NCBI GenBank assembly: GCA_001275005.1
Contig: JWZX01002628.1
Coordinates: forward strand, 1-42,899
Direction: 5' to 3'
Length of the DNA stretch: 42,899 bases
Source of the DNA: Chrysochromulina tobinii
Taxonomy: Eukaryota > Haptophyta > Prymnesiales > Chrysochromulinaceae
Shown: in pieces, positions 4,730 through 37,598 of the stretch
How positions within the stretch are numbered: position 1 is the first letter of the stretch
Layout: the number at the start of each line of letters is the position of its first letter
Position numbers and translations under genes: made by a program
The notes under the pieces: generated by a model
Databases searched by the model: none
What the model saw: only the letters and a program-made list of their open reading frames with translations
Told to the model about the DNA's origin: nothing

Positions 4730-7700
4730 TCAATAACGCCTGCTGCTCAGTAAAGAACTTACTCCGTTGAGTCCCGCGCGTATGGAATCTCCAAAATTGC
4801 TCGGGATAGATGGTGGGATGGGTGGCGGACTCAGTGGCGGATCCGATCCCCACTTGTTGTGCGGATTGGCTGGGCCCATCGTCATCCAATCCTCAACCTT
4901 CCTTGTGAAGCCTGCTGCAACGCCTTCGTCATATGTGTAGCCCATCTTCTTGCAATCGGAAGGCAGGAGTCCACCGATCTTGGCTTGCTGGCATGTTGTG
5001 CCGGACGCCTTGATGAGTTGCAGCTTCTCCTCTAGCGACCCTTTTCCATAGATCACCGCGACCACCTGCCGATCCAGGCCACATTCCATGCATTGCGCAG
5101 CGGAGAAGCCCGCGGACCTGAGCTCCAAAATGGAGCACGGGGCAGCCAAAAATTCGAGTGCACTGAAGCCCCCCTTCTTGAGCTCGGCGGTAGTGTAGCC
5201 AGGATGGCATTCCCTCAGAAGGTCCCTGAGCGCGTACCCGCCGAGCCGCATCTCCTCCGCCGTGTAGCCGACGCTCTTGAGTGTGTTTGCGTCAAAGGCC
5301 GGCGCGCCATTTGGGAGTCTCGTGAGTTTGAGGTCTTTCGCAGGGAAGCCGGCCTCGCGAAGCTCGAAGGGTTCATAGAAGCCTTCCCGTCGCCCGAAGG
5401 GGCCGAGTGGTCCTTCGACTAGGAGCTCCTTGACGGTGCGGCCGTCCACGGCCTCGGCGATCCTCTTCTTGAAGCCGGCTGCCTTGAGCTCCTCCTCCGA
5501 GAAGCCAACTTCCTTGAGCTCTTTCGCAAGGAACCCGCCGATCTTGAGCTCCTTCACCAAGCAGCCCTCGGCCTTGAGCAGTGCCAGATTGTACCCTATG
5601 GCCTTGAGCTCTTCGACCGAGACGCCGCCCCTCAAGAGCTCCGTTGGCCGATAGCCGACAGCCTTGAGCTCAGCGGGAGACCAGCCCACCAAGAGCTCCT
5701 TGGCTGTGAACCCTTCAGCCTTCAGCTGCACAGCCGTGAACCCATGCTCTCTGAGCTCCTTGGGCGAGATTTTGGCGGCTTTCAGGTCAGCCGCGATGTA
5801 TCCACACTCCTTGAGCTCCGGAATGGTGAATCCACCTGCCTTCAGGTCTCCTGCGGTGTACCCGACCGCCTTGAGCGTGCTGGCTTTGAACCCGACGCTC
5901 CGTAGGTCGGCCCCGCTGAATCCTGCGCCGAAGAGCTGCTCAGCCCCAAAGCCCGCCGCTTCAAGCTCCTTCACGGGGAAGCCCACCTCCTTGAGCTCCT
6001 TGCATTTGATACCGCTGTTCTTAAGCTCCTTGGGCATGAAGCCAGCCTCCTTGAGATCACGCAGAAAGAGGACGTCGAACTGGGCGGAGCCGTTGATTTC
6101 CTTGGCAGTGAAGCCCTCACGCTTGAGGTCCTCGAGCTTGAAACCTAACTTCCTCAGACGCTGTGCCGAAACACCGCTCTCCTTGAACTCGCAGGCTGTG
6201 AAGCCCACCTCCTTGAGCCGCTCGTCGGAGAAGCCAGCCTCTTGCAGTTGCTGCACCACGAAGTAGGCTGCCTTGAGCTGTGCTAGAGAGAAGCCCACCT
6301 CTTTCAGGTTGGTGGCGGTGAAGCCCGCTACTCGGAGCTCGAGTGCGGAGAAGTTGCAAGCCTTGAGCACGCCTGCGGTAAAGCCACCCTTCCCGAGCTC
6401 TTCCGCCGAAAAGCCCGCGGTCTTCAGCTGCTCGGCCGAATAGCCCGACTCCCGGAGGTCGCTAATGCTCTGGCCGTTGGTGACTTCGATGAGCCAAGCG
6501 TCGAAGCCCGCGGTCCGCAGGTCCTCTTCCGTGTAGCCAACGGCCCGGAGCGCCCTTGCCGTGTAGCTCCCCTTGAGCTCAGCAGCTTTGAATCCCGCCG
6601 CGCGCAGATCTTTGGCCGAGAAGCCTGCGTCGTAAAGAGCGGCTGCCGTGCGCTTCCCGTTCCGCATCTCTTGCACCAGCCGCTTGTCGAAGCCGGCCTT
6701 CTCCATCTCAAGGGAGTCGAACCCGCCGTCCATGAGCTCAAGGGCGCCATACTTTTCCGTCCGCAACCGGGCTGCAGTGTATCCAGCCGCCCTCAGCTCT
6801 GCAATAGAGGCACCCGACTCCTTCATCTTGGTGAGTGACGTACCCACGCCTTTCAGTTGAGCGATGGTGAAGCCCGCGGCTTGTAATTCCTCGACAGAGT
6901 AACCGCCGTTGTGCAGCTCATCCAGCGTGAAGCCGACCACAAGCATATTCGGCACGGCGTGCCCCGCCTCTCGCAACTCCCGCGCCAGGTACCCTGCCTC
7001 CCTCAGCAGCTCTAACGCGAAAGCACTCGTCGCCTCGGTGGCGTTGTAGCCTGCCAGCTTGACCTTCGATTGATTGTAGCCTCCGTCGCGCATCTCGACT
7101 GCTGTGTAGCCTGCAATGCGCATGTCTCCGAGCCTGTATTCCGCCTTGCGGCACTGCGACACCGTGAAGCCAACTTTGCGAAGCTGAGTGGCAGAAAACT
7201 CCGCCTCCTTCAGGTCCGTTGAAGAATACGTCGCCTCTCTCAGCTCCGCCAGCGTGTAGCGAGCGGCCTTGAGCTCGACGGCAGTGAAGGTGCCTTGACG
7301 CATCTCCGTCGCACTGTATCCAAAAGGCTTCAGCTGCTCCGCAGTGATAGCACCTTCTCGCATCTCCTTGAGTGAGTACCCCAGCTCTCTCACCGTCTTC
7401 ACATCCACTCCGAGAGCCTCCTTGAGCTCAGCCACTGTGAAGCATCCTTCTCGAAGCTGCGCGAGCGAGATGTTGCCGCTGTGAAGCTCGCGGGCGCCAA
7501 AGCCGACGCCACGGAGTACCTCCACGCTCAAGAGACTGAGCACATGCGCACGTCGTGCATGGCCCTCGACGATCACGTGTTTCAGATGCTGCTCCCAAGC
7601 GCTTCTCGTGACTCGTTTGGTGACGAGCACGTCCTGGATGTACCGGACAATGCGCTCGCCCGCATGCCGACTGCTCTCATCGACCGTGGTCTGGCTCCGA

Positions 7701-10057
7701 TTGACCCGCAATAACTCGGCCATCAGCATGATCTCATCGTGCCACGGGCCGCCAGGCAGCTTGAAGAACTCCATCGCACGTAGTGCCTTCAGCGCCACTT
7801 TGCCCCCTGCCCGGATCTGGTCGACGGGTAATGCGCACTTGGTCAAGTCCGAGATGAAAAGCTGCTTCAAGGAGATGAGAGCAATTGGGTTGGTGGCCAT
7901 CGCGTTGATCAACGGCGCGCCGCTCGAGTCTTCTTCACTCCACTGGAGCCCGCTCTGAGCAAGGTTGAGGCGCCACAGACTCTTGTTTTCCTCGAGGGCA
8001 TTAATCAGCGGAGAGATCTCGCCCTTATCAAGCTTGTACATACACGTCCACTCGCTGATCGCGCCCTTCTTGAGCGCGTCAAGGGGCAAGCCCCCACCGA
8101 CGTTCCACAGCTGCCAGACCTTCATCGGGATGCTGATGCCCGCCGCATTGGACTGTTCTACCATCTCAAGCCACGTCTTGAGCGTCGCGAGAGTCGAGAT
8201 CGTAATGGACTGAGGTAGCAGCTGGGCAAAGTCGAGCATTGCCAGGTCGGTGGGCCGAGCAGTTCCCTCATGAACGCGACCCATGACGCTCACGAGGATA
8301 TACGACTGCAGCAGGCACTGCGGCAAGCTTTCGATGAAGATCTCGGCGATGACGCGAGTCGCCTTGTACGCCGGAATGAAGGTCTTGAGCCACTCGGGAA
8401 GAGGCAGCACTGCCAAAAGACCAAACGGCTCGAGGAACATCATCATGTCGAGCAGCAGCGACCCGAAAGGGAACCCACCCCATAGATAGGCCTTATAGAT
8501 GGGACTATCCGCACCAAAGGTAGTCAGAAGGTAAGGGAGAACTCGAATGTAGATGACCGCGAATTGCGCCACAAGGAAGAAAAGAGACATATGCCCCCAC
8601 GTAGTGTTGCCAGACTTGTAGAGCAGCATCAGTACTTGCACATCCGAGATGACGTCGGCAAAGTAGACTGACACTGTCACGAGGCCGTTCGCAGTGTTCG
8701 ACAGCGCCTGCGCCAGCTCGCTCTTCACAGCGGCCTTCTTCTTGGCCGACGATTCACTTTGATCACCACTTCCAGCGTTGACCATGACCTTCTCCAGTTC
8801 AGCGCGTCGTCCTTTCAGAGCCTCGAGCTGAGCCTCAAGCTCCATGGTGACCTTGACGCGCAACTTGATCTCAAGCTCTTCGACCCTGTTGGCCACCTTG
8901 TACAACTGCATCTTCAATTCCTGCGCGCTCAGCACCGAATGATCCTCTTCGGCGCTCTCATCCAGCGCCTGGTAGCTCCCGCGCATTCGTCGGCGCTCAA
9001 ACCAGTCCATCATGTCCTTCCAGTAGAGAGCGACTAAGCCCAGTGCGAACGCCACACCTAAGTCAACTGCCAGATATGCTTCTGGCTCGGCCAGAGCAAA
9101 GGTATTGAATTCAATCTTGGCTTCCTGTGACCATGTTGGCTGTGAAGGCGGAGGAGGAGGCGCAACGAGACTGGGGTCGGCGAAGTGGGCGCGGAGCTGC
9201 TTCGCACTCCAGTTGAAGATCATGCTGGACGGGATCGACAGCATGATAAGGAGAGGCAGGTACGTGTCGAGGAACTCCATGGCAAATACTCCAACCTCCC
9301 GCGCCGAAGGTAGGGCATCAAAGCACGACCCTTTCTTGTCCACAGTGTCTGAAGTCGAGCCCATCTCCAGATCGCCTTCCCTTTTCTTCTTGCGCGGGCT
9401 TGTGCTGCGCCCCACGATCTGTGCCTGCTTCTGAGGCGGTGAACCATCGCCAGCAGGCAGTGGAGACCCACCAGGCCGGTGGGAAGATGAGCCATCCAAC
9501 AAGGCCGATCGAGCCGACATGAAAGGCGCTGCCAAGTTAGCGGGGAGCTGCGCAAGCACTGCCATGAGGTCCTGATCGATCTTGAGTTGCCGCATTGTGA
9601 ATGCGGCGACGCGGCGCAGCCGCATGGTTTCGCTCACCTTCTGCTCCTTGCTGGGTGCCTGACCTCGTTTCTTGATTTCGTACCACAAGCCCATCGTCTC
9701 TTTGAGCTTCGCCGTATCCTCTGTGGCTTTCTCGCAGGCACGCATCATCAGCCGGAACTCAAATGGGTCGATCTCACCATCGCCATCCTCATCGGCATCC
9801 GCCATCATTTGGTCGATGACCTTAGCCTCCAGAGGCTTGCCGTAGAGCTGTCGCATGGCAAACTCAAGCTCCTTGCGTGAGATCTTGCCGCTCCCGTCTC
9901 CGTCGAGCTCTTTGAATTTCTTATCGAGTGTCTCTCTCGACGTTTTCGGGCTCGACGGTGCGCTCGACTGTGGTGTGGCTGTCAAACTCCTGGTCTGGTT
10001 CTTGCTGCTTATGTCCAACTGGCCACCTCTTGTCCACCTGGCAGAGGCGGCGGCCAT
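4730..10057 (-). CDS. Giant EF-hand / XKR-like membrane / decapeptide-repeat protein
   Basis: One frame of 1775 aa starts at ATG 10057 (an in-frame GTG at 10084 is also open). Residues 52-63 (DGDGSGKISRKE) and 89-100 (DEDGDGEIDPFE) are two canonical EF-hand loops, so calcium binding is expected. About six hydrophobic spans lie near residues 256-281, 328-346, 456-481, 489-511, 532-553 and 568-592, with a coiled coil at about 377-425 between the second and third. The span containing EIFIESLPQCLLQSYIL carries the E-xx-PQ-xxLQ signature seen in XK-related (scramblase-type) proteins; this match is by eye only. Leucine-rich segments follow at about 680-760. Residues about 860-1655 are a near-continuous array of 10-residue units of the form GF[TS]AxELKxA. 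The C-terminus is Pro-rich. I infer a calcium-regulated membrane protein with a large repeat scaffold. No intron is apparent, although the gene is over 5 kb. Confidence 0.75.
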   Translation of the reverse strand: MAAASARWTRGGQLDISSKNQTRSLTATPQSSAPSSPKTSRETLDKKFKELDGDGSGKISRKELEFAMRQLYGKPLEAKVIDQMMADADEDGDGEIDPFEFRLMMRACEKATEDTAKLKETMGLWYEIKKRGQAPSKEQKVSETMRLRRVAAFTMRQLKIDQDLMAVLAQLPANLAAPFMSARSALLDGSSSHRPGGSPLPAGDGSPPQKQAQIVGRSTSPRKKKREGDLEMGSTSDTVDKKGSCFDALPSAREVGVFAMEFLDTYLPLLIMLSIPSSMIFNWSAKQLRAHFADPSLVAPPPPPSQPTWSQEAKIEFNTFALAEPEAYLAVDLGVAFALGLVALYWKDMMDWFERRRMRGSYQALDESAEEDHSVLSAQELKMQLYKVANRVEELEIKLRVKVTMELEAQLEALKGRRAELEKVMVNAGSGDQSESSAKKKAAVKSELAQALSNTANGLVTVSVYFADVISDVQVLMLLYKSGNTTWGHMSLFFLVAQFAVIYIRVLPYLLTTFGADSPIYKAYLWGGFPFGSLLLDMMMFLEPFGLLAVLPLPEWLKTFIPAYKATRVIAEIFIESLPQCLLQSYILVSVMGRVHEGTARPTDLAMLDFAQLLPQSITISTLATLKTWLEMVEQSNAAGISIPMKVWQLWNVGGGLPLDALKKGAISEWTCMYKLDKGEISPLINALEENKSLWRLNLAQSGLQWSEEDSSGAPLINAMATNPIALISLKQLFISDLTKCALPVDQIRAGGKVALKALRAMEFFKLPGGPWHDEIMLMAELLRVNRSQTTVDESSRHAGERIVRYIQDVLVTKRVTRSAWEQHLKHVIVEGHARRAHVLSLLSVEVLRGVGFGARELHSGNISLAQLREGCFTVAELKEALGVDVKTVRELGYSLKEMREGAITAEQLKPFGYSATEMRQGTFTAVELKAARYTLAELREATYSSTDLKEAEFSATQLRKVGFTVSQCRKAEYRLGDMRIAGYTAVEMRDGGYNQSKVKLAGYNATEATSAFALELLREAGYLARELREAGHAVPNMLVVGFTLDELHNGGYSVEELQAAGFTIAQLKGVGTSLTKMKESGASIAELRAAGYTAARLRTEKYGALELMDGGFDSLEMEKAGFDKRLVQEMRNGKRTAAALYDAGFSAKDLRAAGFKAAELKGSYTARALRAVGYTEEDLRTAGFDAWLIEVTNGQSISDLRESGYSAEQLKTAGFSAEELGKGGFTAGVLKACNFSALELRVAGFTATNLKEVGFSLAQLKAAYFVVQQLQEAGFSDERLKEVGFTACEFKESGVSAQRLRKLGFKLEDLKREGFTAKEINGSAQFDVLFLRDLKEAGFMPKELKNSGIKCKELKEVGFPVKELEAAGFGAEQLFGAGFSGADLRSVGFKASTLKAVGYTAGDLKAGGFTIPELKECGYIAADLKAAKISPKELREHGFTAVQLKAEGFTAKELLVGWSPAELKAVGYRPTELLRGGVSVEELKAIGYNLALLKAEGCLVKELKIGGFLAKELKEVGFSEEELKAAGFKKRIAEAVDGRTVKELLVEGPLGPFGRREGFYEPFELREAGFPAKDLKLTRLPNGAPAFDANTLKSVGYTAEEMRLGGYALRDLLRECHPGYTTAELKKGGFSALEFLAAPCSILELRSAGFSAAQCMECGLDRQVVAVIYGKGSLEEKLQLIKASGTTCQQAKIGGLLPSDCKKMGYTYDEGVAAGFTRKVEDWMTMGPANPHNKWGSDPPLSPPPIPPSIPSNFGDSIRAGLNGVSSLLSSRRY
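5090..7480 (-). repeat. 30-bp coding repeat array (10-aa units, about 70-80 copies)
   Basis: Within the giant minus-strand gene, the DNA repeats with a 30-nt period, encoding G-[F/Y]-[T/S]-A-x-E-L-K-x-A. Phe/Tyr at unit position 2 and Leu at position 7 are five residues apart with small residues two before each, so the pattern could be read as a diverged pentapeptide repeat (right-handed beta helix). Equally it could form short helices joined by GF turns. Copies are diverged at the DNA level, so the array is old rather than a fresh expansion. A few units are irregular (for example around residues 990-1010 and 1170-1190). Confidence 0.8.
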
Positions 10058-10265
10058 GCCCGCCCGCCTCCGCTCGCGACACACGACCTCGCACTACGAT
10101 TCTTTTTGGAACCATTTTTGTGCATGTTTCAGAAGTTTCAGATTGTGTGAAAGTACTGTACATGTACTTTCTGAACTGTCAGAATAAACGAAGACGCTCA
10201 CGTTTTGTCTTGAATCTTTAGATCACAGAAACGATCGTTTGCGTGCATGCAACCGAGAAGGTCAA
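10058..10265. promoter_or_regulatory. Shared divergent promoter interval
   Basis: These 208 bases separate the ATG of the giant EF-hand gene (minus) from the ATG of the small plus-strand gene, so both promoters must lie here or overlap. The stretch about 10095-10215 is clearly less GC-rich than its surroundings. No TATA box is convincing. This call rests on gene arrangement only. Confidence 0.4.
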
Positions 10266-11268: not shown

Positions 11269-13845
11269 ATGCGGTGCGTTCGTCGTGGCACCGACAGCTT
11301 TCCGCAGCCGCTCTACGGAGAGGAGACTCCGCCTACGCCGATCACCGCCGACGAAAAGTATGCAAAGCGTGCAGGCCACGAATTGCACGCGATTCCATCG
11401 ATGTGCGACAGTGGAACGATGGATCCGACGAGTGCTGACACGCGCACGATGGCGTTGCTGCTCGGTGCCGGCTTTTTGACGCGCTTTTATGGCCTGAACT
11501 GGCCACCGCAGGTGGTCTTTGACGAGGTCCATTTCGGCAAATTTATTAGTGGCTACATCACGGGCCGGTACTTTTTCGACATCCACCCACCCCTCGGCAA
11601 GCTGCTCATTGCGGCGGTCGCCTGGTGGTCGGGGTACGACGGCACACAGCCCTTTGAGACGATTGGCGAGCACTACCACCCGCATGTCGACATCTTCATG
11701 CTGCGTGCGCTGCCGGCAACCTTCGGAGCCGCGCTGCCGCCGCTCATGTACGCCCTGGCGCGGGAGCTCGGCTGCTCGCGCACCGCTGCGACGCTTGTGG
11801 GCGGCCTGGTGCTGCTCGACGGTGCGATGCTCGTCGAGTCGCGTCTCCTGCTCACCGATAGCTCCCTCTTCTTTTGGGATTCTCTGCAGCTCCTGACAGC
11901 CCTCCGAGCTTCAGCGGCACCGCGCGGCACCGCAGCGTTTCACGCGCAGCTCGCGCTGACGGGACTTGCAATCGGCGCGGCAGTGTCGACGAAATGGACC
12001 GCGCTTGCCAACATGGGCGTCGTTGGCCTCGATTCGATCCACTCCCTTCTCAAGACCATGCATGCATCCGTCCACCGGCTGCAAGGGCAGCCACAGCAGC
12101 CACAGCCGTCACAGCCGCCACAGCCGCCACAGCCGCCACAGCCGCCACAGCCGCCACAGCCGCCACAGCAGCGGCACGAGCTCCCACATTCACAGCAACA
12201 ACATTCACAGCAATGGCACGATTGGTCGCCGCCCTCGTCGCCGCCGCTGACGTCGCCGCCTCAGCAGCGGGTGGCAACCAACGGCCCTATGGCAACCAAC
12301 GACCCCAATATGGCAACCAACGACCCAAATATGGCAGCCAACGACCTCGAGGCCCACAACCCGGAGGCTATCAGAGGGCGGCGCAGCCCGGAGCTCGTCC
12401 GCGACGGTAGTAGTTTGGTGGCAGTTGCCTGGGCGAACGGGCGTGGCGGCGGCTGCTCGCGCGTGCCTGCGGTGCTGCACCGACGCGTGCTACAAGCGAC
12501 CCCTCCGCGCCTGGGTGCTCTGATGGTAGCGCTGCAGCCAGTAGCATCCGAGTTTGGTGCTCGCTTTGTGTGGCTGTTGCTGCTGCCCTCGGCGGTCTAC
12601 CTCACTTGCATGGCGTTACACATTAAGCTGCTACCGTACGTGGGCCGCGGCGATAACTTCCACGATCGGCACTTTCGCTGCCGGCTGCTCCTTCTGCCCC
12701 GCGCCGGTGCCGGCGCCGCCGCCGAGACGCAGAGTCTACTCGCAGTGCCGCCGCCTGGGTGCGTCGCCGTAGGCTGCGACGCGTGTGCCGAAGTGACGCC
12801 TCTCAGCCTATGGCAGGCGATTATCTCTCTGAACAAACTCATGTTCACGGCGAATGCGAACATCAAGAGATCGCACGCCTTTGGCTCAGGCTGGAGGATG
12901 TGGCCACTGGCCTCCAAACCTGTGTTTTATTGGACGCTCAACACGCCGCACTTTTCGAGGCTCCGCTGGTGCCGCATCTACATGGCCGCCAACCCACTTG
13001 TCTGGTACGTGGGGCTCTTCCTGATGACCTCTGATGACCTCTGATGACCTCTGATGACCTCTGATGACCTCTGATGACCTCTGATCGCCTCCCTCATCAG
13101 GTACGTGGGGCTCGCGGGGATCGTGCTGCTGGCGCTCGTGCTCGCTTTCCTTGGAGCTCGCGGCCTCCTCCGCTCCGCCTATAGATGGGTACGCTGGAAG
13201 GACTCACGATCACGAGACAGGGCGCTCTCTGTCCTCCCACTGGCAGCGGCTGCGGCCAGCCATGCCGGTGCTCAGCACGGCGCTATCACGGGACCACGTC
13301 TGAGGAGAATCTCGGAGGAGAGTGACGAAACACATCTGAGGAGAATCTCGGAGGAGAAAGACGGAGGCCATCCGGAGCTCGGCCAGCGAGGATCTATCGA
13401 GGCTACTGTGGTGACGGCACCCTCATTGGCCTCGCCGTCGTGGCCGGCGTCAACGGCTCCAACGGCTCCAACGGCTCCAACGGCTCCAACGGCTCCTAGT
13501 CCTCTTGAAGTGCAGCTGCGCCACGGCTGGTTGCTGTTGGCCGGCCACGCCCTCGCGTGGCTGCCCTTTGCCGCCGTCGACCGCGTCGCCTTTCTGTACC
13601 ATTACATCCCCGCTCTGCTCTTCTCTCTACTGGCCGCCGGTCTCGTCTTCGATGTGCTCACGCAGCGAGCAGCCGCCTTCGCCCTTCCGCGAGGCTTCAC
13701 GGGGCGCGACCTCGCCGCTGCGCTGCTCCTCACACTTGCCCTCGCCAGCTTTCTTTATTTTATGCCCCTCTACCTTGGCTGGCCAATCGAACCGGGCGAT
13801 GGCGTCCACCGCATGCGTCGTCTAGATGTGTGGAGCGAGTCGTAG
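11269..13845 (+). CDS. Protein O-mannosyltransferase (PMT, GT39), two exons
   Basis: Exons 11269-13004 and 13101-13845 encode 826 aa. PMTs move mannose from dolichyl-phosphate-mannose to Ser/Thr of proteins entering the ER lumen. The diagnostic first luminal loop is present: VVFDEVHFGKFI with the catalytic Asp-Glu pair (D85, E86), then FFDIHPPLGKLLIA. Multiple hydrophobic spans follow, then LHIKLLPYVGRGDNF (the conserved GDNF-type loop) and the C-terminal four-span region (FGSGWRMWPLASKPVFYW to LYFMPLYLGWPIEPGDG). Two oddities stand out. The loop after VSTKWTAL carries an insertion of about 150 residues rich in Pro/Gln and Asn. The MIR domains usual in eukaryotic PMTs are not visible between the GDNF loop and the C-terminal region. 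The last exon also has Thr-Ala-Pro repeats (APTAPTAPT). The family call is firm; the missing MIR could reflect an unspliced or misread segment. Confidence 0.9.
12115..12168 (+). repeat. 9-bp coding microsatellite (CCGCCACAG)x6
   Basis: Six perfect copies of CCGCCACAG encode Pro-Pro-Gln repeats in the mannosyltransferase loop insertion, with related imperfect copies on either side. A 24-nt and then a 21-nt period follow further downstream (about 12290-12340) and encode Met-Ala-Thr-Asn-Asp units. The insertion is therefore expanding by slippage and lies in a loop that tolerates length change. Confidence 0.85.
13005..13100 (+). other. Introner-like intron in the PMT gene (10-bp units)
   Basis: A GT-AG intron of 96 nt joins NPLVW to YVGLAGIVLL in frame. 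It starts GTACGTGGGGCTC, an exact 13-nt copy of the start of exon 2 (13101-13113). The core is six perfect CTGATGACCT units (13021-13080), then one variant CTGATCGCCT, and it ends CCCTCATCAG. The end CTGATGA/TCATCAG pair is a 7-bp inverted repeat. The GT31 gene intron has the same core and the same 3' end. Confidence 0.9.
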
Positions 13846-24810: not shown

Positions 24811-24945
24811 AATGCATGCTGAGGCGTCAGTCTGCCCAATGCATGCTGAGGCGTCAGTCTGCCCAATGCATACTGAGACGTCAGTCTGCCCAATGCATGC
24901 TGAGACGTCAGTCTGCCCAATGCATGCTGAGGCGTCAGTCTGCCC
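24811..24945 (+). repeat. 27-bp minisatellite, five units
   Basis: Five head-to-tail units of 27 bp (24811-24837, 24838-24864, 24865-24891, 24892-24918, 24919-24945) start AATGCATGCTGAGGCGTCAG and end TCTGCCC. The third unit has GCATACTGAGAC and the fourth GCATGCTGAGAC; the others are identical. Because 27 is a multiple of three, it creates open frames on both strands; these are judged to be artefacts. Confidence 0.95.
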
Positions 24946-25230
24946 AAGAGCCTTTCAGCTGCTGCTAGCCATACTGTACACGAGCTATTAGCCATTAGAT
25001 GCCTTGCGGTGTCGACACAGTGGGTGTGCGGTGCGAGTGTGTGTACATGAGTTTCGTGTTGACATGGTTTCGTGCTCGGCTGTGCGTCCCGGGTCCGCTC
25101 GCCCGTACGGCCGTACCTCGCCGGCACTCGAGAATACCCCGCGGCCCGCGCGCGCGGCGCGTACGGCGTCGGGCGGTACCGGGCCGGGCGGAACGTACTT
25201 ATCTACTCGTTGCGAGCCCTGGCTGTCACC

Positions 25231-25490
25231 GAGCTGTCGAGCTGTCGAGGCTCCGTCGAGGCGCTGTCGAGGCGCTGTCGAGTCGACTGTCGAGGCGCTG
25301 TCGAGGCGCTGTCGAGGCCTTGCCTGTCGAGCCTGTCGAGCCTGTCGAGCTCCTGTCGAGTAGCTGTGTCGAGGCTGTCGAGGCTGACTGCAGGTGCCTG
25401 GGTGTCGAGCTGTCGTGTCGAGTAGCTGTCGAGTTTCTCTGTCGAGGCTGTCGAGTTTATATACACTGTCGAGTGTGCTGTCGAGCTCGA
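25231..25490 (+). repeat. CTGTCGAG-rich cluster 1
   Basis: About two dozen TCGAG words, mostly as CTGTCGAG spaced by 0-10 bases, with a locally regular GGCGCTGTCGA period. The array is too irregular for a classical satellite. All copies have the same orientation as those in cluster 2. Confidence 0.85.
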
Positions 25491-25636
25491 GCCTGACATG
25501 TAGCTTTGCTATTTTGCATGAAGCACTCTGACTCTCACAGCAGTAGGCCTATAGAGGACCCACACATAAACCACCAACCAAACTATAGTTCAAACGGATA
25601 AAGAACGCTCGGGCTCGGAGATCAGGACCCGTCACA

Positions 25637-25731
25637 CCCTAACCCCTAACCCCTAACCCCTACATAGCCACAGGTTTCTTTACTGTTATACTGTAATACC
25701 CACCCTAAACCCCTACCTAGCCACTGGTTTC
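25637..25731 (+). repeat. Telomere-like CCCTAA/CCCCTAA runs, two neighbouring units
   Basis: CCCTAA-CCCCTAA-CCCCTAA-CCCC at 25637-25660 is followed by TACATAGCCACAGGTTTC. A second copy at 25703-25731 reads CCCTAAACCCCTACC then TAGCCACTGGTTTC, so the telomere-like motif and its flank form a diverged two-copy repeat. It is too short and too far inside the window for a chromosome end. Confidence 0.7.
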
Positions 25732-25981
25732 AAGACCAGAAAATGCAATCTTGATGCAATTCTAAGGAGAATTAGGTCAAAAAGAGCACGAAAGAGCACA
25801 AACGTGGAACGTTAGTGGAACGAAAGGTCCACCAGAACATCCATCATCCAGCCACCAAGTTGTGTAGTTGAGCAGTGGGTCCATCAACCTTCACCCTGAA
25901 GGAGTGGGGCTCTAACCTGGCTTCTCTCAGCTAGTGCTTGTAGATCCCAGTCTTAGACCTCGTGTTACCTCGTTAACCTCG

Positions 25982-26148
25982 TGTCGAGGTCTGTCGAGGT
26001 CTGTCGAGCTGTCGAGCTGTCGAGCTTGACACCTTGACGCACAGGCACATGGAGTCACGAGTAGCTCTGTCGAGTAACTGTCGAGTAGCTTTGACTTCTA
26101 GCTGTCGAGTAACTCTAACTGTCGAGTTTCCTGTCGAGTTGTCGAGGC
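25982..26148 (+). repeat. CTGTCGAG-rich cluster 2
   Basis: Roughly a dozen TCGAG words, again mainly CTGTCGAG, in the same orientation as cluster 1. Just outside the two clusters lie GAGCCCTGGC (25214-25223) and its exact inverse GCCAGGGCTC (26147-26156). Confidence 0.8.
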
Positions 26149-35520: not shown

Positions 35521-35605
35521 ATTATAAACGCTTCGCACGAGTGCGCGCTTCACAGTGCGCTGCGCAGTGCCCTGCTGTGGCGCGATTGAATCCGGTTTGG
35601 AGTGC

Positions 35606-35719
35606 CATATTAGGTTGCGCTTTTGTGCGGGTTTCGTCGCGCCCATATTAGGTTGCGCTTTTGTGCGGGTTTCGTCGCGCCCATATTAGGTTGCGCTTTT
35701 GTGCGGGTTTCGTCGCGCC
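35606..35719 (+). repeat. 38-bp tandem repeat, three copies, between the GT31 copies
   Basis: Three perfect or near-perfect 38-bp units (35606-35643, 35644-35681, 35682-35719) begin CATATTAGGTTGCGCTTTTG and end GTCGCGCC. They overlap the stop codon of the full GT31 gene (35686-35688) and sit about 85 nt from the truncation point of the partial copy, so they mark or formed near the duplication breakpoint. Confidence 0.95.
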
Positions 35720-37598
35720 CAGTCAGCGCCCGTGCGCCTTCGGCCGCGACCCCTGCCGCGGCCGCTGCCACCCTCGGCAAGCGGCGTGGTGGCCTCGGCA
35801 GCGCTTGCCGGAAGCGAGGCCGCCTCTAGTCGAGGTCGTTTCCTGCCAAGGCCACCCCTGCTTTTGTAGGCTTCCTCGTGATTGCTGCTCAGTCGGCCGC
35901 GGCGGCGGATGCGCGTGCCTCCGTCGCGTGCGCACTGCTCGTGATCATAAAGCGTAGCCCCCTGGCCCATGGCGTGCGACGCATAGTGGAAGCCGCCGTG
36001 CTTGAGGTTATGCACGAACAGGGTCAGGTTACAGGGCGGGCGGTAGAGGCCGCCTCCCTTGGCCTTGAGTGCACCGTTTTTATGGCACACGAAGTCGTGT
36101 ACCCAGCGTCCGACATTGACGTACAGGATAGTGAACGGCGCGTAGCTGAGCCAGTAACCAGTAGAGGTATCCTCAAACTTCTGCCACTGGATCGCGTCGC
36201 GCGTGGGGCCGGCCGCTTGGCGTACCTGATGAGGGAGGTCACCAGAGGCCATCAGAGGTCATCAGAGGCCGAGCTCGGCGTACCTGATGAGGGAGGCCAT
36301 CAGAGGTCATCAGAGGGGCCAGCCGCTTGGCGTACCCAGTTGATCACGGCCGCGTCGGTGGCCACCCATCGCAGCGTCGCCGCGCTGAAGACATAGGCCG
36401 CACCCGTGCCGTACGGGAACGGCGGTACGGCACCGAGCTTGTCGCACGGCGGGAAGTAGCTAGGGCACGGGAACGAGGAGCACGGCTTTCCAAACGTGGC
36501 GCCGTAGTTCACGAGCGCGGCCCCCACACCCCATCCGAAGCCACATCGGTCGTTGCGCACACCCGTACTGCGCGCCTGCGGCACCACTCCAGCCCAATTG
36601 ATGGCCCCTATGAAGAGGTGTTCCTTACAACGGAGCTGTGCTCCGAGCGCCACGAGCAGCGCAAGGTTGGGCGCAGTGTCATCGTCAATCTTGCCCACAT
36701 ACGGCACGTGCGGCAGCATGCGCGCCGCGTGCTGGAAGAATGCGTACTGCTTGAACGTCGGCATGCCGCGGCCCAGTCGTGTGAAGTTGGAGTAGGCCGT
36801 CTTCGCTGTAATGAGCGCACGTGTCTCGGGCACATCGAGCAGGAGCAGGTCAGCATGCGCGCCCTGCTCCGCGATGAGCGCGGCCGTCTCATCGGCGGGG
36901 CCGTGCGCGGAGAGCAAGAAGCACGCGGCGACGCTGCGCCCGTAGGCAGCATGCGCCATCCACGACGTCCGCGCAGCATCGCGCCGTCCGCTGCCTGGCG
37001 ACAGCGCCGTCGTCGGCAGGCCGAGCAGGATGAGCAGCCCGTCGTCGAGCGAGCGCGAGGATGAGCCGCACCGAAGCGTACCGCGCGGCAGCCGCGTGAG
37101 AGCGCCGGCGCTGGCCTCGCGCAGCCGCGTCCGCAGCAAATCGCTGTCGGCCAGCGGTGCAACGAGACGAGTCGACGTCGTCCCACGAAGTGCGCTCGAG
37201 GTGAAGCTTTCGCCAGGTCCGTCAATGTCCGCAGGCAGAGCCACAGTGCGCTCTGAAGTGGACGTTCGATGATCGAAAGCTGCGCATTTGGGAAGCTTTC
37301 GCTGAGCGTGTGCCGCAGCGTCAAGTGAGAAGTCCTCGCCTCGCATGGGACCGTTGAGGTCAACGGACGGGTAGCGGCGCGAGAGCGCCTGCGAGAAGCA
37401 GCCCTTGTAGTCGCGGTTCGGGCACAGCGCTAGGAGCAGAGACACGTTGACGTTCTCACCCATGGGCACATTCGGCAGCTCGCGCAGCGGGCGGTCGCGA
37501 GGGTGTGCCATGGGCACACCAGCTCGAGGTTTGACGCGAAGGGTCAGCAGTGTGAAAGAATGGATGGAAAGAAGGGCGGCCAACAGCGCGAGAGCCAC
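35686..37598 (-). CDS. GT31-type (beta-3-galactosyltransferase-like) Golgi glycosyltransferase
   Basis: Exons 36336-37598 and 35686-36225 give 600 aa from a GTG at 37598. No ATG precedes the hydrophobic anchor; the frame is open back to TAG at about 37634, so a short 5' exon is likely. The first about 18 residues (ALALLAALLSIHSFTLLTL) form a type II signal anchor. The DxD-like metal/sugar-nucleotide site is YVGKIDDD at residues 305-307. FPYGTGAAYVFSA matches the GT31 YP-x-Y-x-x-G-x-G-Y motif, and FEDTSTG (E439-D440) matches the EDV-x-x-G motif. Such enzymes add galactose or N-acetylhexosamine in beta-1,3 linkage to secretory glycans. The C-terminus after CARDGG is basic and its stop falls in the 38-bp repeat. 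A truncated copy follows 3' and a PC-esterase gene is divergent 5'. Confidence 0.8.
36226..36335 (-). other. Introner-like intron in the GT31 gene, internally duplicated
   Basis: Phase 0 between Trp and Val (INW|VRQAAGP). Minus-strand reading: it starts GTACGCCAAGCGGC..., a 21-nt near-exact copy (one mismatch) of the start of exon 2. This is followed by CTGATGACCTCTGATGGCCT + CCCTCATCAG. A second full unit then begins GTACGCCGAG and ends CTGATGGCCTCTGGTGACCT + CCCTCATCAG just before exon 2. The first unit alone is a complete potential intron. The core and 3' end match the PMT intron at 13005-13100 (19 of 20 nt over the last two units). Confidence 0.9.

What the first reader, a model, noticed from the sequence alone, without database searches (positions are those of the whole stretch)
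13005..13100. Introns of two unrelated genes share the same repeat core and 3' end: an introner-like element
Seen directly: the PMT intron is GTACGTGGGGCTC..., then six CTGATGACCT units, CTGATCGCCT and CCCTCATCAG. The GT31 intron (36226-36335, minus) is GTACGCC..., CTGATGACCT, CTGATGGCCT, CCCTCATCAG, with that block present twice. The terminal 20 nt agree at 19 positions. The host genes are unrelated, so common descent of the host DNA cannot explain it. Known families of introners (reported in Micromonas, Aureococcus, dinoflagellates and other algae) generate many introns from copies of one sequence. Inference: this window holds two members of such a family, with a CTGATGA/TCATCAG terminal inverted repeat.
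Basis: partly seen in the sequence, partly recalled or inferred. Interest (0 to 1): 0.9.

Follow-up and report, generated by a model that had tools for sequence, protein, structure and literature searches.

The report
Self-spreading splice-acceptor repeat makes introns
A short repeat that carries the downstream half of an intron has been copied into very many places in an uncultured alga, and at most studied sites a duplicated piece of the host gene supplies the upstream half, so that a new intron can form without damaging the protein.

Summary
The two introns are real and belong to a very large family. CTGATNNCCTCCCTCATCAG occurs 950 times exactly, and 5445 times with up to 3 mismatches, in the 53 Mb host genome (reversed control 0 and 11). 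Aligned relatives' proteins run without a gap across both window introns. In the sample, 136 of 227 copies have such a duplication anchored at CAG| (2.4% in controls). It varies from 10 to 44 bp and usually starts GT or GC. [quoted passage not shown] Only the element's 3' end is fixed; terminal inverted repeats and short fixed duplications, as in DNA-transposon introners, are absent. Neighbouring copies are more alike than distant ones, and both junctions show some microhomology. I favour copying by template switching in DNA repair; RNA-primed insertion is the main rival. The published introner survey's stated filters would probably discard such a family. No RNA-seq was available.

The parts
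11269..13004 (+). PMT (protein O-mannosyltransferase) exon before the introner
   Evidence: Pfam PF02366, PF16192; intron phase 2, frame restored on splicing
13005..13100 (+). introner in PMT, 96 nt, GT...AG
   Evidence: the 7 aligned relatives other than the intron-reading conspecific run without insertion across the junction
13005..13017 (+). host duplication copy 1 (GTACGTGGGGCTC), supplies the 5' splice site
   Evidence: identical to 13101-13113
13018..13100 (+). inserted body: tandem CTGAT units (branch-point-like), pyrimidine stretch, CCCTCATCAG 3' splice site
13101..13113 (+). host duplication copy 2, start of the next PMT exon (exon runs to 13845)
36226..36335 (-). introner in GT31, 110 nt, two units in tandem
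   Evidence: 21 of 21 aligned relatives run gaplessly across the junction
36315..36335 (-). host duplication copy 1, 5' splice site GTACG
   Evidence: 20 of 21 identical to 36205-36225
36284..36314 (-). first inserted body, ending CTGATGGCCTCCCTCATCAG
36267..36283 (-). internal, diverged copy of the host duplication (GTACGCCGAGCTCGGCC)
36226..36266 (-). second inserted body, ending CTGGTGACCTCCCTCATCAG
36205..36225 (-). host duplication copy 2, start of the next GT31 exon (exon open to about 35689)
36336..37598 (-). GT31 galactosyltransferase exon before the introner
   Evidence: Pfam PF01762

Best explanation
These are members of a large intron-making family in a haptophyte alga related to Chrysochromulina. 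Each element is a portable acceptor cassette: one or more about 10-nt units with a branch-point-like CTGAT, a pyrimidine stretch, and a fixed 3' end CCCTCATCAG. It typically sits between two copies of a 10-44 bp piece of the host exon that usually begins GT or GC. The first copy gives the 5' splice site and becomes intron; the second stays exon, so splicing restores the coding sequence. I infer that copies spread by template switching in DNA repair. A growing strand leaves the exon at a short match to the repeat, copies an existing introner, often a nearby one, through CAG|GT, and re-anneals to the exon at a matching GTNNN a little upstream; repeating the loop gives arrays. Shown: the anatomy, copy number, duplications, protein-level splicing at several sites, local similarity. 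Inferred: the branch-point role of CTGAT and the copying route.
For: Copy number against reversed control: 950 v 0 exact, 1670 v 1 for the last 13 nt, 5445 v 11 at up to 3 mismatches. Followed by G in 1484 of 1670 and by GT in 1139 of 1670. Duplication anchored at CAG|: 136 of 227 copies (102 of the 180 not chosen by exon sequence), null 2.4%; 43 exact ones are 10-44 bp, median 20. Proteins continuous across junctions: PMT 7 of 7 aligned relatives, GT31 21 of 21 aligned of 73 found, FtsZ against a solved bacterial FtsZ, Pfam domains across 6 of 10 junction proteins and 1 of 8 new loci (VPS13_N). Locality: same-strand sites under 500 bp apart are at least 80% identical in 17 of 38 pairs, against 8.3% of 7461 pairs between contigs. 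5' junction microhomology: 1.16 nt against 0.53 (sd 0.09) in 42 of 78 junctions. 3' junction: within-contig pairs with bodies at least 85% identical share 5 or more exon-start bases in 10 of 29, against 1.8 expected genome-wide (0 of 2000 shuffles) and 6.7 within contig (56 of 2000), while exon positions 13-40 are unrelated. Arrays: 14 of 127 sites have 2 or 3 units.
Against: No RNA-seq. Pairs in the locality and exon-start tests are not independent: the 10 pairs come from six contigs, and one of them (L040) matches in repeat sequence after CAG, not exon (one search list). Between contigs the exon-start effect is weak (30 of 331 against 20.1 expected, 150 of 2000 shuffles). Likeness does not fall smoothly with distance (same strand, 2-5 kb: 10 of 40) and 5 of 25 opposite-strand pairs are also alike. 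With only local donors the 5' microhomology test is tiny (14 pairs, 7 recipients, 8 pairs from one array contig), and pooled over all 476 distant pairs it vanishes (0.37 v 0.43), though not per recipient (1.18 v 0.36). 91 of 227 copies show no duplication above threshold. Duplications starting with neither GT nor GC exist, so exon restoration is not universal. No empty allele was seen at DNA level. A cDNA route could leave the same scars.
Confidence: 0.55

Rival explanations
1. RNA route: intron-derived or SINE-like RNA ending ...CCCTCATCAG is reverse-transcribed at a nicked target (target-primed reverse transcription), giving a fixed 3' end, variable 5' truncation and target duplications of variable length.
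For: Fixed 3' end, many different 5' starts, variable duplications and 5'-junction microhomology are also what L1-type insertion gives (recalled). Strong bias to G and GT after CAG.
Against: Local likeness of copies and shared exon-start bases beyond CAG between near-identical local pairs are not expected from a trans-acting RNA that ends at CAG. Some insertions with clean duplications start with bases other than GY. Duplications to 44 bp are long for this route (recalled).
Confidence: 0.25
2. Non-autonomous DNA transposon (MITE-type introner) moved by a transposase.
For: Flanking duplication and one splice site co-opted from it, as in published introners (PMC9860276, passages).
Against: Duplication length varies 10-44 bp instead of a short one of 3-9 bp; 5' end of the insert not fixed; no terminal inverted repeat, only 2 of 87 inserts start CTGATGA.
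Confidence: 0.07
3. Excised intron inserted whole by reverse splicing, as proposed for Micromonas introners (PMC3879977, passages).
For: Sits at spliceable sites in the genes that could be checked.
Against: A reverse-spliced intron would bring the donor's 5' end. Here the 5' part of the intron matches its own downstream exon (136 of 227).
Confidence: 0.03
4. Plain tandem duplication of exon AGGT segments, with the repeat core arising by convergence on splicing signals or local minisatellite growth.
For: Exon duplication and AG|GT junctions fit the tandem-duplication model (PMC3443670, passages); the units look like branch-point and acceptor signals.
Against: The same 13-nt end exists 1670 times against 1 in the control and bodies are shared between unrelated genes, so sequence was copied between loci.
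Confidence: 0.05
5. Staggered double-strand breaks repaired by end joining with captured filler made of abundant repeat DNA, without template switching from a neighbour.
For: Daphnia new introns carry 4-12 bp repeats of this kind (PMC4202315, passages).
Against: Needs a recurrent filler always ending at CAG|, and does not predict local likeness.
Confidence: 0.05

Closest known systems
Introners / introner elements (Micromonas, Aureococcus, Symbiodinium; Gozashti et al. 2022, PMC9860276)
   Same: Many introns made from copies of one sequence in unrelated genes; one splice site carried by the element and the other taken from the target duplication (as in their Symbiodinium example, Fig. 2B legend).
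   Different: Their text gives 3-9 bp duplications and TIRs in 72 of 177 families; similarity must reach both intron ends. Here the duplication is 10-44 bp and variable, there is no terminal inverted repeat, the body is a minisatellite, and copies are locally alike.
Chrysochromulina sp. introner family 5 (TARA_PON_109_MAG_00232; Fig. 2C of PMC9860276)
   Same: Related alga.
   Different: 4 bp duplication, carries the 5' splice site and co-opts the 3' one: the reverse of the family here (figure legend read).
New introns of Daphnia pulex (PMC4202315)
   Same: Direct repeat of the adjacent exon's terminal bases at the far intron end; repair-based origin proposed (passages).
   Different: 33 such repeats of 4-12 bp, in a study of 90 new introns; no shared family sequence, as I recall.
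Intron gain by tandem duplication of AGGT exon segments (reviewed in PMC3443670)
   Same: Exon segment duplicated; AG|GT used at both ends; mRNA unchanged (passages).
   Different: There the intron interior is only the duplicated exon; here a shared foreign body lies between the copies.
Amoebophrya introners (PMC7789003) and fungal stwintrons (PMC12403724)
   Same: Multiplying introns; DSB-based insertion proposed for stwintrons (passages).
   Different: Amoebophrya: 3-5 nt direct repeats with 8-20 nt inverted repeats in non-canonical introns. Stwintrons: no target duplication.

Membership tests
Introner in the broad sense (intron-making element) | Many similar introns in genes without homology to each other | tested here: met
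   950 exact / 5445 near copies; checked hosts include PMT, GT31, asparaginase, GH3, UCH, FtsZ, VPS13. Only a small share of all copies was checked for being in a gene
Introner in the broad sense (intron-making element) | Inserted into exons, coding sequence restored by splicing | tested here: met
   Host duplication 136 of 227; protein continuity at the sites that homology could test. At protein level only; exceptions
Introner in the broad sense (intron-making element) | Efficient splicing in RNA | not testable with these tools
   No RNA-seq held
[quoted passage not shown]
   Where a duplication is seen, the 5' 10-44 nt are host-specific; only the 3' end is shared
DNA-transposon (MITE-type) introner | Short target duplication (3-9 bp in PMC9860276) | tested here: not met
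   43 exact duplications, 10-44 bp, median 20; shorter ones would fall under the score threshold
DNA-transposon (MITE-type) introner | Terminal inverted repeats | tested here: not met
   2 of 87 inserts begin CTGATGA; inverted pair lies inside the last 20 nt
Reverse-splicing introner | No target duplication; whole intron moved | tested here: not met
   Duplication in 136 of 227
Target-primed retroelement (SINE/LINE-like) | Fixed 3' end, 5' truncation, variable target duplication | tested here: met
   shared with the template-switch reading; copies were collected by their 3' end, so its fixity is partly by choice
Target-primed retroelement (SINE/LINE-like) | Partner reverse-transcriptase element with the same 3' end | not tested
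   No search made
Microhomology-mediated template-switch insertion | Microhomology at both junctions and nearby donor | tested here: inconclusive
   Present in aggregate, undecided when restricted to local donors at the 5' side

The most novel reading that the evidence does not exclude
Introns here multiply without any transposase or dedicated enzyme: a splice-acceptor minisatellite is copied from neighbouring introns into exons by microhomology-driven template switching. Each insertion plants a new CAG|GT junction that can prime the next, so the spliceosome's own signals make the repeat self-propagating. This would be an intron-gain route distinct from DNA transposition, reverse splicing and simple exon duplication, and one that survey filters against repetitive introns would hide in other genomes.
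Probability: 0.42. Interest if true: 0.9.

Novelty: new variant of a known kind. Interest (0 to 1): 0.78.

Why it matters
How introns arise in bursts is a long-standing open question. Here a family of thousands of copies carries readable insertion scars (both copies of the duplicated exon, still identical in 43 of the 94 copies used), so the mutational step can be read directly. The architecture shows that a 3' half-intron can spread if the target supplies GT or GC. The main published survey requires similarity at both intron ends and removed families rich in short repeats (PMC9860276, passages), so relatives of this family may be overlooked elsewhere.

Tried and rejected
Reading-frame openness as proof of splicing was rejected: 47 of 61 spliced joins are open for 90 nt on both sides, but so are 41 and 45 of 61 frame-shifted joins and 45 of 61 antisense ones, so one search's 48 of 59 is not used as evidence. 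The codon-usage frame test was weak: only 34 of 63 introns scored as coding in the sense direction on both sides; of these 26 kept frame when spliced and 13 when retained, and no case reached the high-confidence class.

Spread in viruses or bacteria: 1 exact hit in viral contigs and 6 in the prokaryote collection; none is followed by GT or sits in a tandem array, and I read them as chance.

Terminal-inverted-repeat reading rejected. Strict GT-specific target cutting rejected because clean duplications starting with other bases exist. Three loci among the 24 isolated non-GY copies (L028, L105, L108) have their first GT 12 nt into the duplication; noticed by eye, not tested. Target sites resemble 5' splice sites (GTRCG 38% of 92 GT sites against 7% background), but the native intron consensus is unknown, so selection and targeting could not be separated.

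Sampling limits: the 180 copies not chosen by exon sequence lie on 55 contigs, all but the window between C1 and C249 of 2253; part of those places were taken from a list that required GT after CAG, so GT shares in the sample are inflated and the genome-wide 1139 of 1670 is the figure to use. The 47 copies from L076-L103, which bring 25 further contigs, were chosen by exon-start patterns and were left out of the exon-start and locality tests, but they are in the 227 and. Copies without enough flank were dropped before counting. Of 37 further junction proteins listed, I chose 8 loci by eye for Pfam.

Papers: PMC9860276 read in passages and the first part of the text; PMC7789003, PMC3443670, PMC8469720, PMC4202315, PMC12403724, PMC3879977 in passages. 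Searches for a paper describing this family or mechanism. I saw none in the listings, several of which showed only the top rows (e.g. 30 of 67 papers). Supplementary tables could not be read, so whether this genome is among the 175 surveyed is unknown.

Full report
What was checked. In PMT the intron 13005-13100 starts GTACGTGGGGCTC, has TTC, six CTGATGACCT, one CTGATCGCCT, and ends CCCTCATCAG; the next exon starts GTACGTGGGGCTC again. In GT31 (minus, 36226-36335) the intron starts GTACGCCAAGCGGCTGGCCCC and the next exon starts GTACGCCAAGCGGCCGGCCCC; between them lie two repeat bodies separated by a diverged copy of the same host segment. The last 20 nt of the two introns agree at 17 positions; 19 holds for the inner GT31 block.

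Family size. In the window's own genome (53,154,812 bases, 2253 contigs) the exact pattern CTGATNNCCTCCCTCATCAG occurs 950 times and its reversed control 0 times; up to three mismatches gives 5445 against 11; the last 13 bases give 1670 against 1. Of those 1670, 1484 are followed by G and 1139 by GT. The window itself has 3 copies against 0.02 expected. These count motif copies; arrays count more than once.

Host. The window's amine oxidase is 99% identical to an unnamed metagenome protein cluster, 70% to Chrysochromulina tobinii and 69% to the Chrysochromulina 'Chrpa1' set; GT31 relatives include Prymnesium parvum. So I infer an uncultured prymnesiophyte haptophyte. A JGI protein (98% identical, cluster of 37 sequences) reads from PMT into the same intron and ends at the same residue as the retained reading, so the intron is not an artefact of this one assembly.

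Splicing at protein level. PMT: of 8 proteins found, the 7 other than that intron-reading one continue across the junction without an insertion (e.g. P0121 FVWYVALAG against LVWYVGLAG). GT31: 21 of 21 aligned relatives (the best 21 of 73 found) run gaplessly through INW|VRQAAGP, three of them with a transcriptome source label. FtsZ on contig C107 has a three-unit array between FADV and RAVM; with it removed the protein aligns through that point without a gap to a solved FtsZ (2vam, B. subtilis by recall). Pfam domains cross 6 of 10 junction proteins: Exo_endo_phos (24.4 bits, just under its 24.5 cut-off), Asparaginase_C, Glyco_hydro_3_C, Fn3-like, UCH and ADH_zinc_N. The other four had no domain or one beside the junction. 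In one search one of 8 new loci had a crossing domain (VPS13_N, 41 bits, under its cut-off of 80). Retained readings hit stops in both window genes. Mere openness of frames proved useless as a test in this GC-rich genome.

Anatomy in the sample. From 227 copies with flanks on 80 contigs, 136 have a direct duplication of the sequence that follows CAG, anchored at its first base, in the 230 nt upstream; random pairing between contigs gives 2.4%. Among the 180 copies not chosen by exon sequence it is 102. Of the 94 that begin GT or GC and are shorter than 48 nt, 43 are still perfect, 10 to 44 bp long (median 20). The base before the first copy is G in 69 of 94. Hence intron = host copy 1 (with the 5' splice site) + body + CAG, and exon = host copy 2. 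Insert starts are scattered (87 inserts) while the 3' end is fixed, partly because copies were collected by that end. The units CTGATNN.. look like repeated branch-point signals (CTRAY, recalled) followed by a pyrimidine stretch and CAG; this is a reading of the sequence, not a test. 14 of 127 sites carry two or three units.

Not every insertion is tidy. Of those 180 copies, 34 are not followed by GT or GC; 10 of these lie inside or just before a GY-bounded unit, and 24 are isolated, several with clean duplications beginning with other bases. So insertion is not limited to GY. Selection for spliceable sites, or microhomology with donor CAG|GT, must explain the excess. Exon starts GTRCG are 38% of 92 GT sites against 7% background.

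How it spreads. Bodies near each other are more alike: same-strand sites under 500 bp apart are at least 80% identical over 40 nt in 17 of 38 pairs, against 8.3% of 7461 pairs between contigs. The fall with distance is not smooth (8 of 27, 4 of 24, 10 of 40 and 2 of 11 in the next four classes), and 5 of 25 opposite-strand pairs are also alike. On contig C172 three sites within about 850 bp share one body flavour, each with its own host segment, two of them as two-unit arrays; all start GTGCGC, and the two arrays' host segments end in GCTC, which also occurs in the third body. Among 29 within-contig pairs with bodies at least 85% identical, 10 share five or more exon-start bases, against 1.8 in genome-wide shuffles (0 of 2000) and 6.7 in within-contig shuffles (56 of 2000), while exon positions 13-40 show only background identity of 0.26. 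Between contigs the same effect is weak (30 of 331 against 20.1; 150 of 2000). At the 5' junction the end of the host copy matches the repeat context by 1.16 nt on average, against 0.53 (sd 0.09) when shuffled, in 42 of 78 junctions. Against: the 10 pairs come from six contigs and one matches in repeat rather than exon sequence, and the 5' test with local donors only is too small to decide. Together they favour copying by template switching from a nearby introner that includes the first bases of the donor's exon, with RNA-primed insertion as the chief rival. Theta-mediated end joining is a known source of templated insertions (paper listings) and is one candidate pathway; nothing here shows it.

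Comparison with what is known. Published introners have 3-9 bp target duplications and sometimes inverted ends, and in some the 5' splice site comes from the duplication, as here (PMC9860276). The Chrysochromulina family shown there works the other way round, with 4 bp duplications. Daphnia new introns have 4-12 bp repeats, Amoebophrya 3-5 nt, stwintrons none. That survey demanded similarity at both intron ends and removed families with many short repeats by hand, so this family would probably have been excluded. I did not see it described in the listings of nine library searches, which cover open-licence papers only and in several cases showed the top rows only.

Verdict. It works like an introner but fails the operational definition (similarity at both ends) and the DNA-transposon features, so I file it as a new variant: an acceptor-only introner with long, variable host duplications.

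Noticed in passing
window 4733-10084 (-): Long gene with EF-hands and 14 decapeptide-repeat stretches (Pfam PF25296, E 3.9e-205).
   Followed up: no
window 25637-25662: Short CCCTAAC (telomere-like) run in an interior stretch rich in TGTCGAG-type repeats (25233-26026).
   Followed up: no
window 35605-35721: Perfect 38-bp unit repeated 3.1 times at the end of the GT31 gene.
   Followed up: no
window 24811-24947: 27-bp unit repeated 5.1 times at 96%.
   Followed up: no
window 12090-12346 and 13451-13496: Coding minisatellites in PMT linkers; the near-identical protein P0122 lacks the first one.
   Followed up: partly
L028, L105, L108: Introner duplications that do not start with GT/GC but have their first GT 12 nt in, which would add four codons on splicing.
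   Followed up: partly
L040 (contig C127): Array of CTGATTGCCTCCCTCATCAGG units spaced 21 nt, the body alone repeated with no host segment between units.
   Followed up: no
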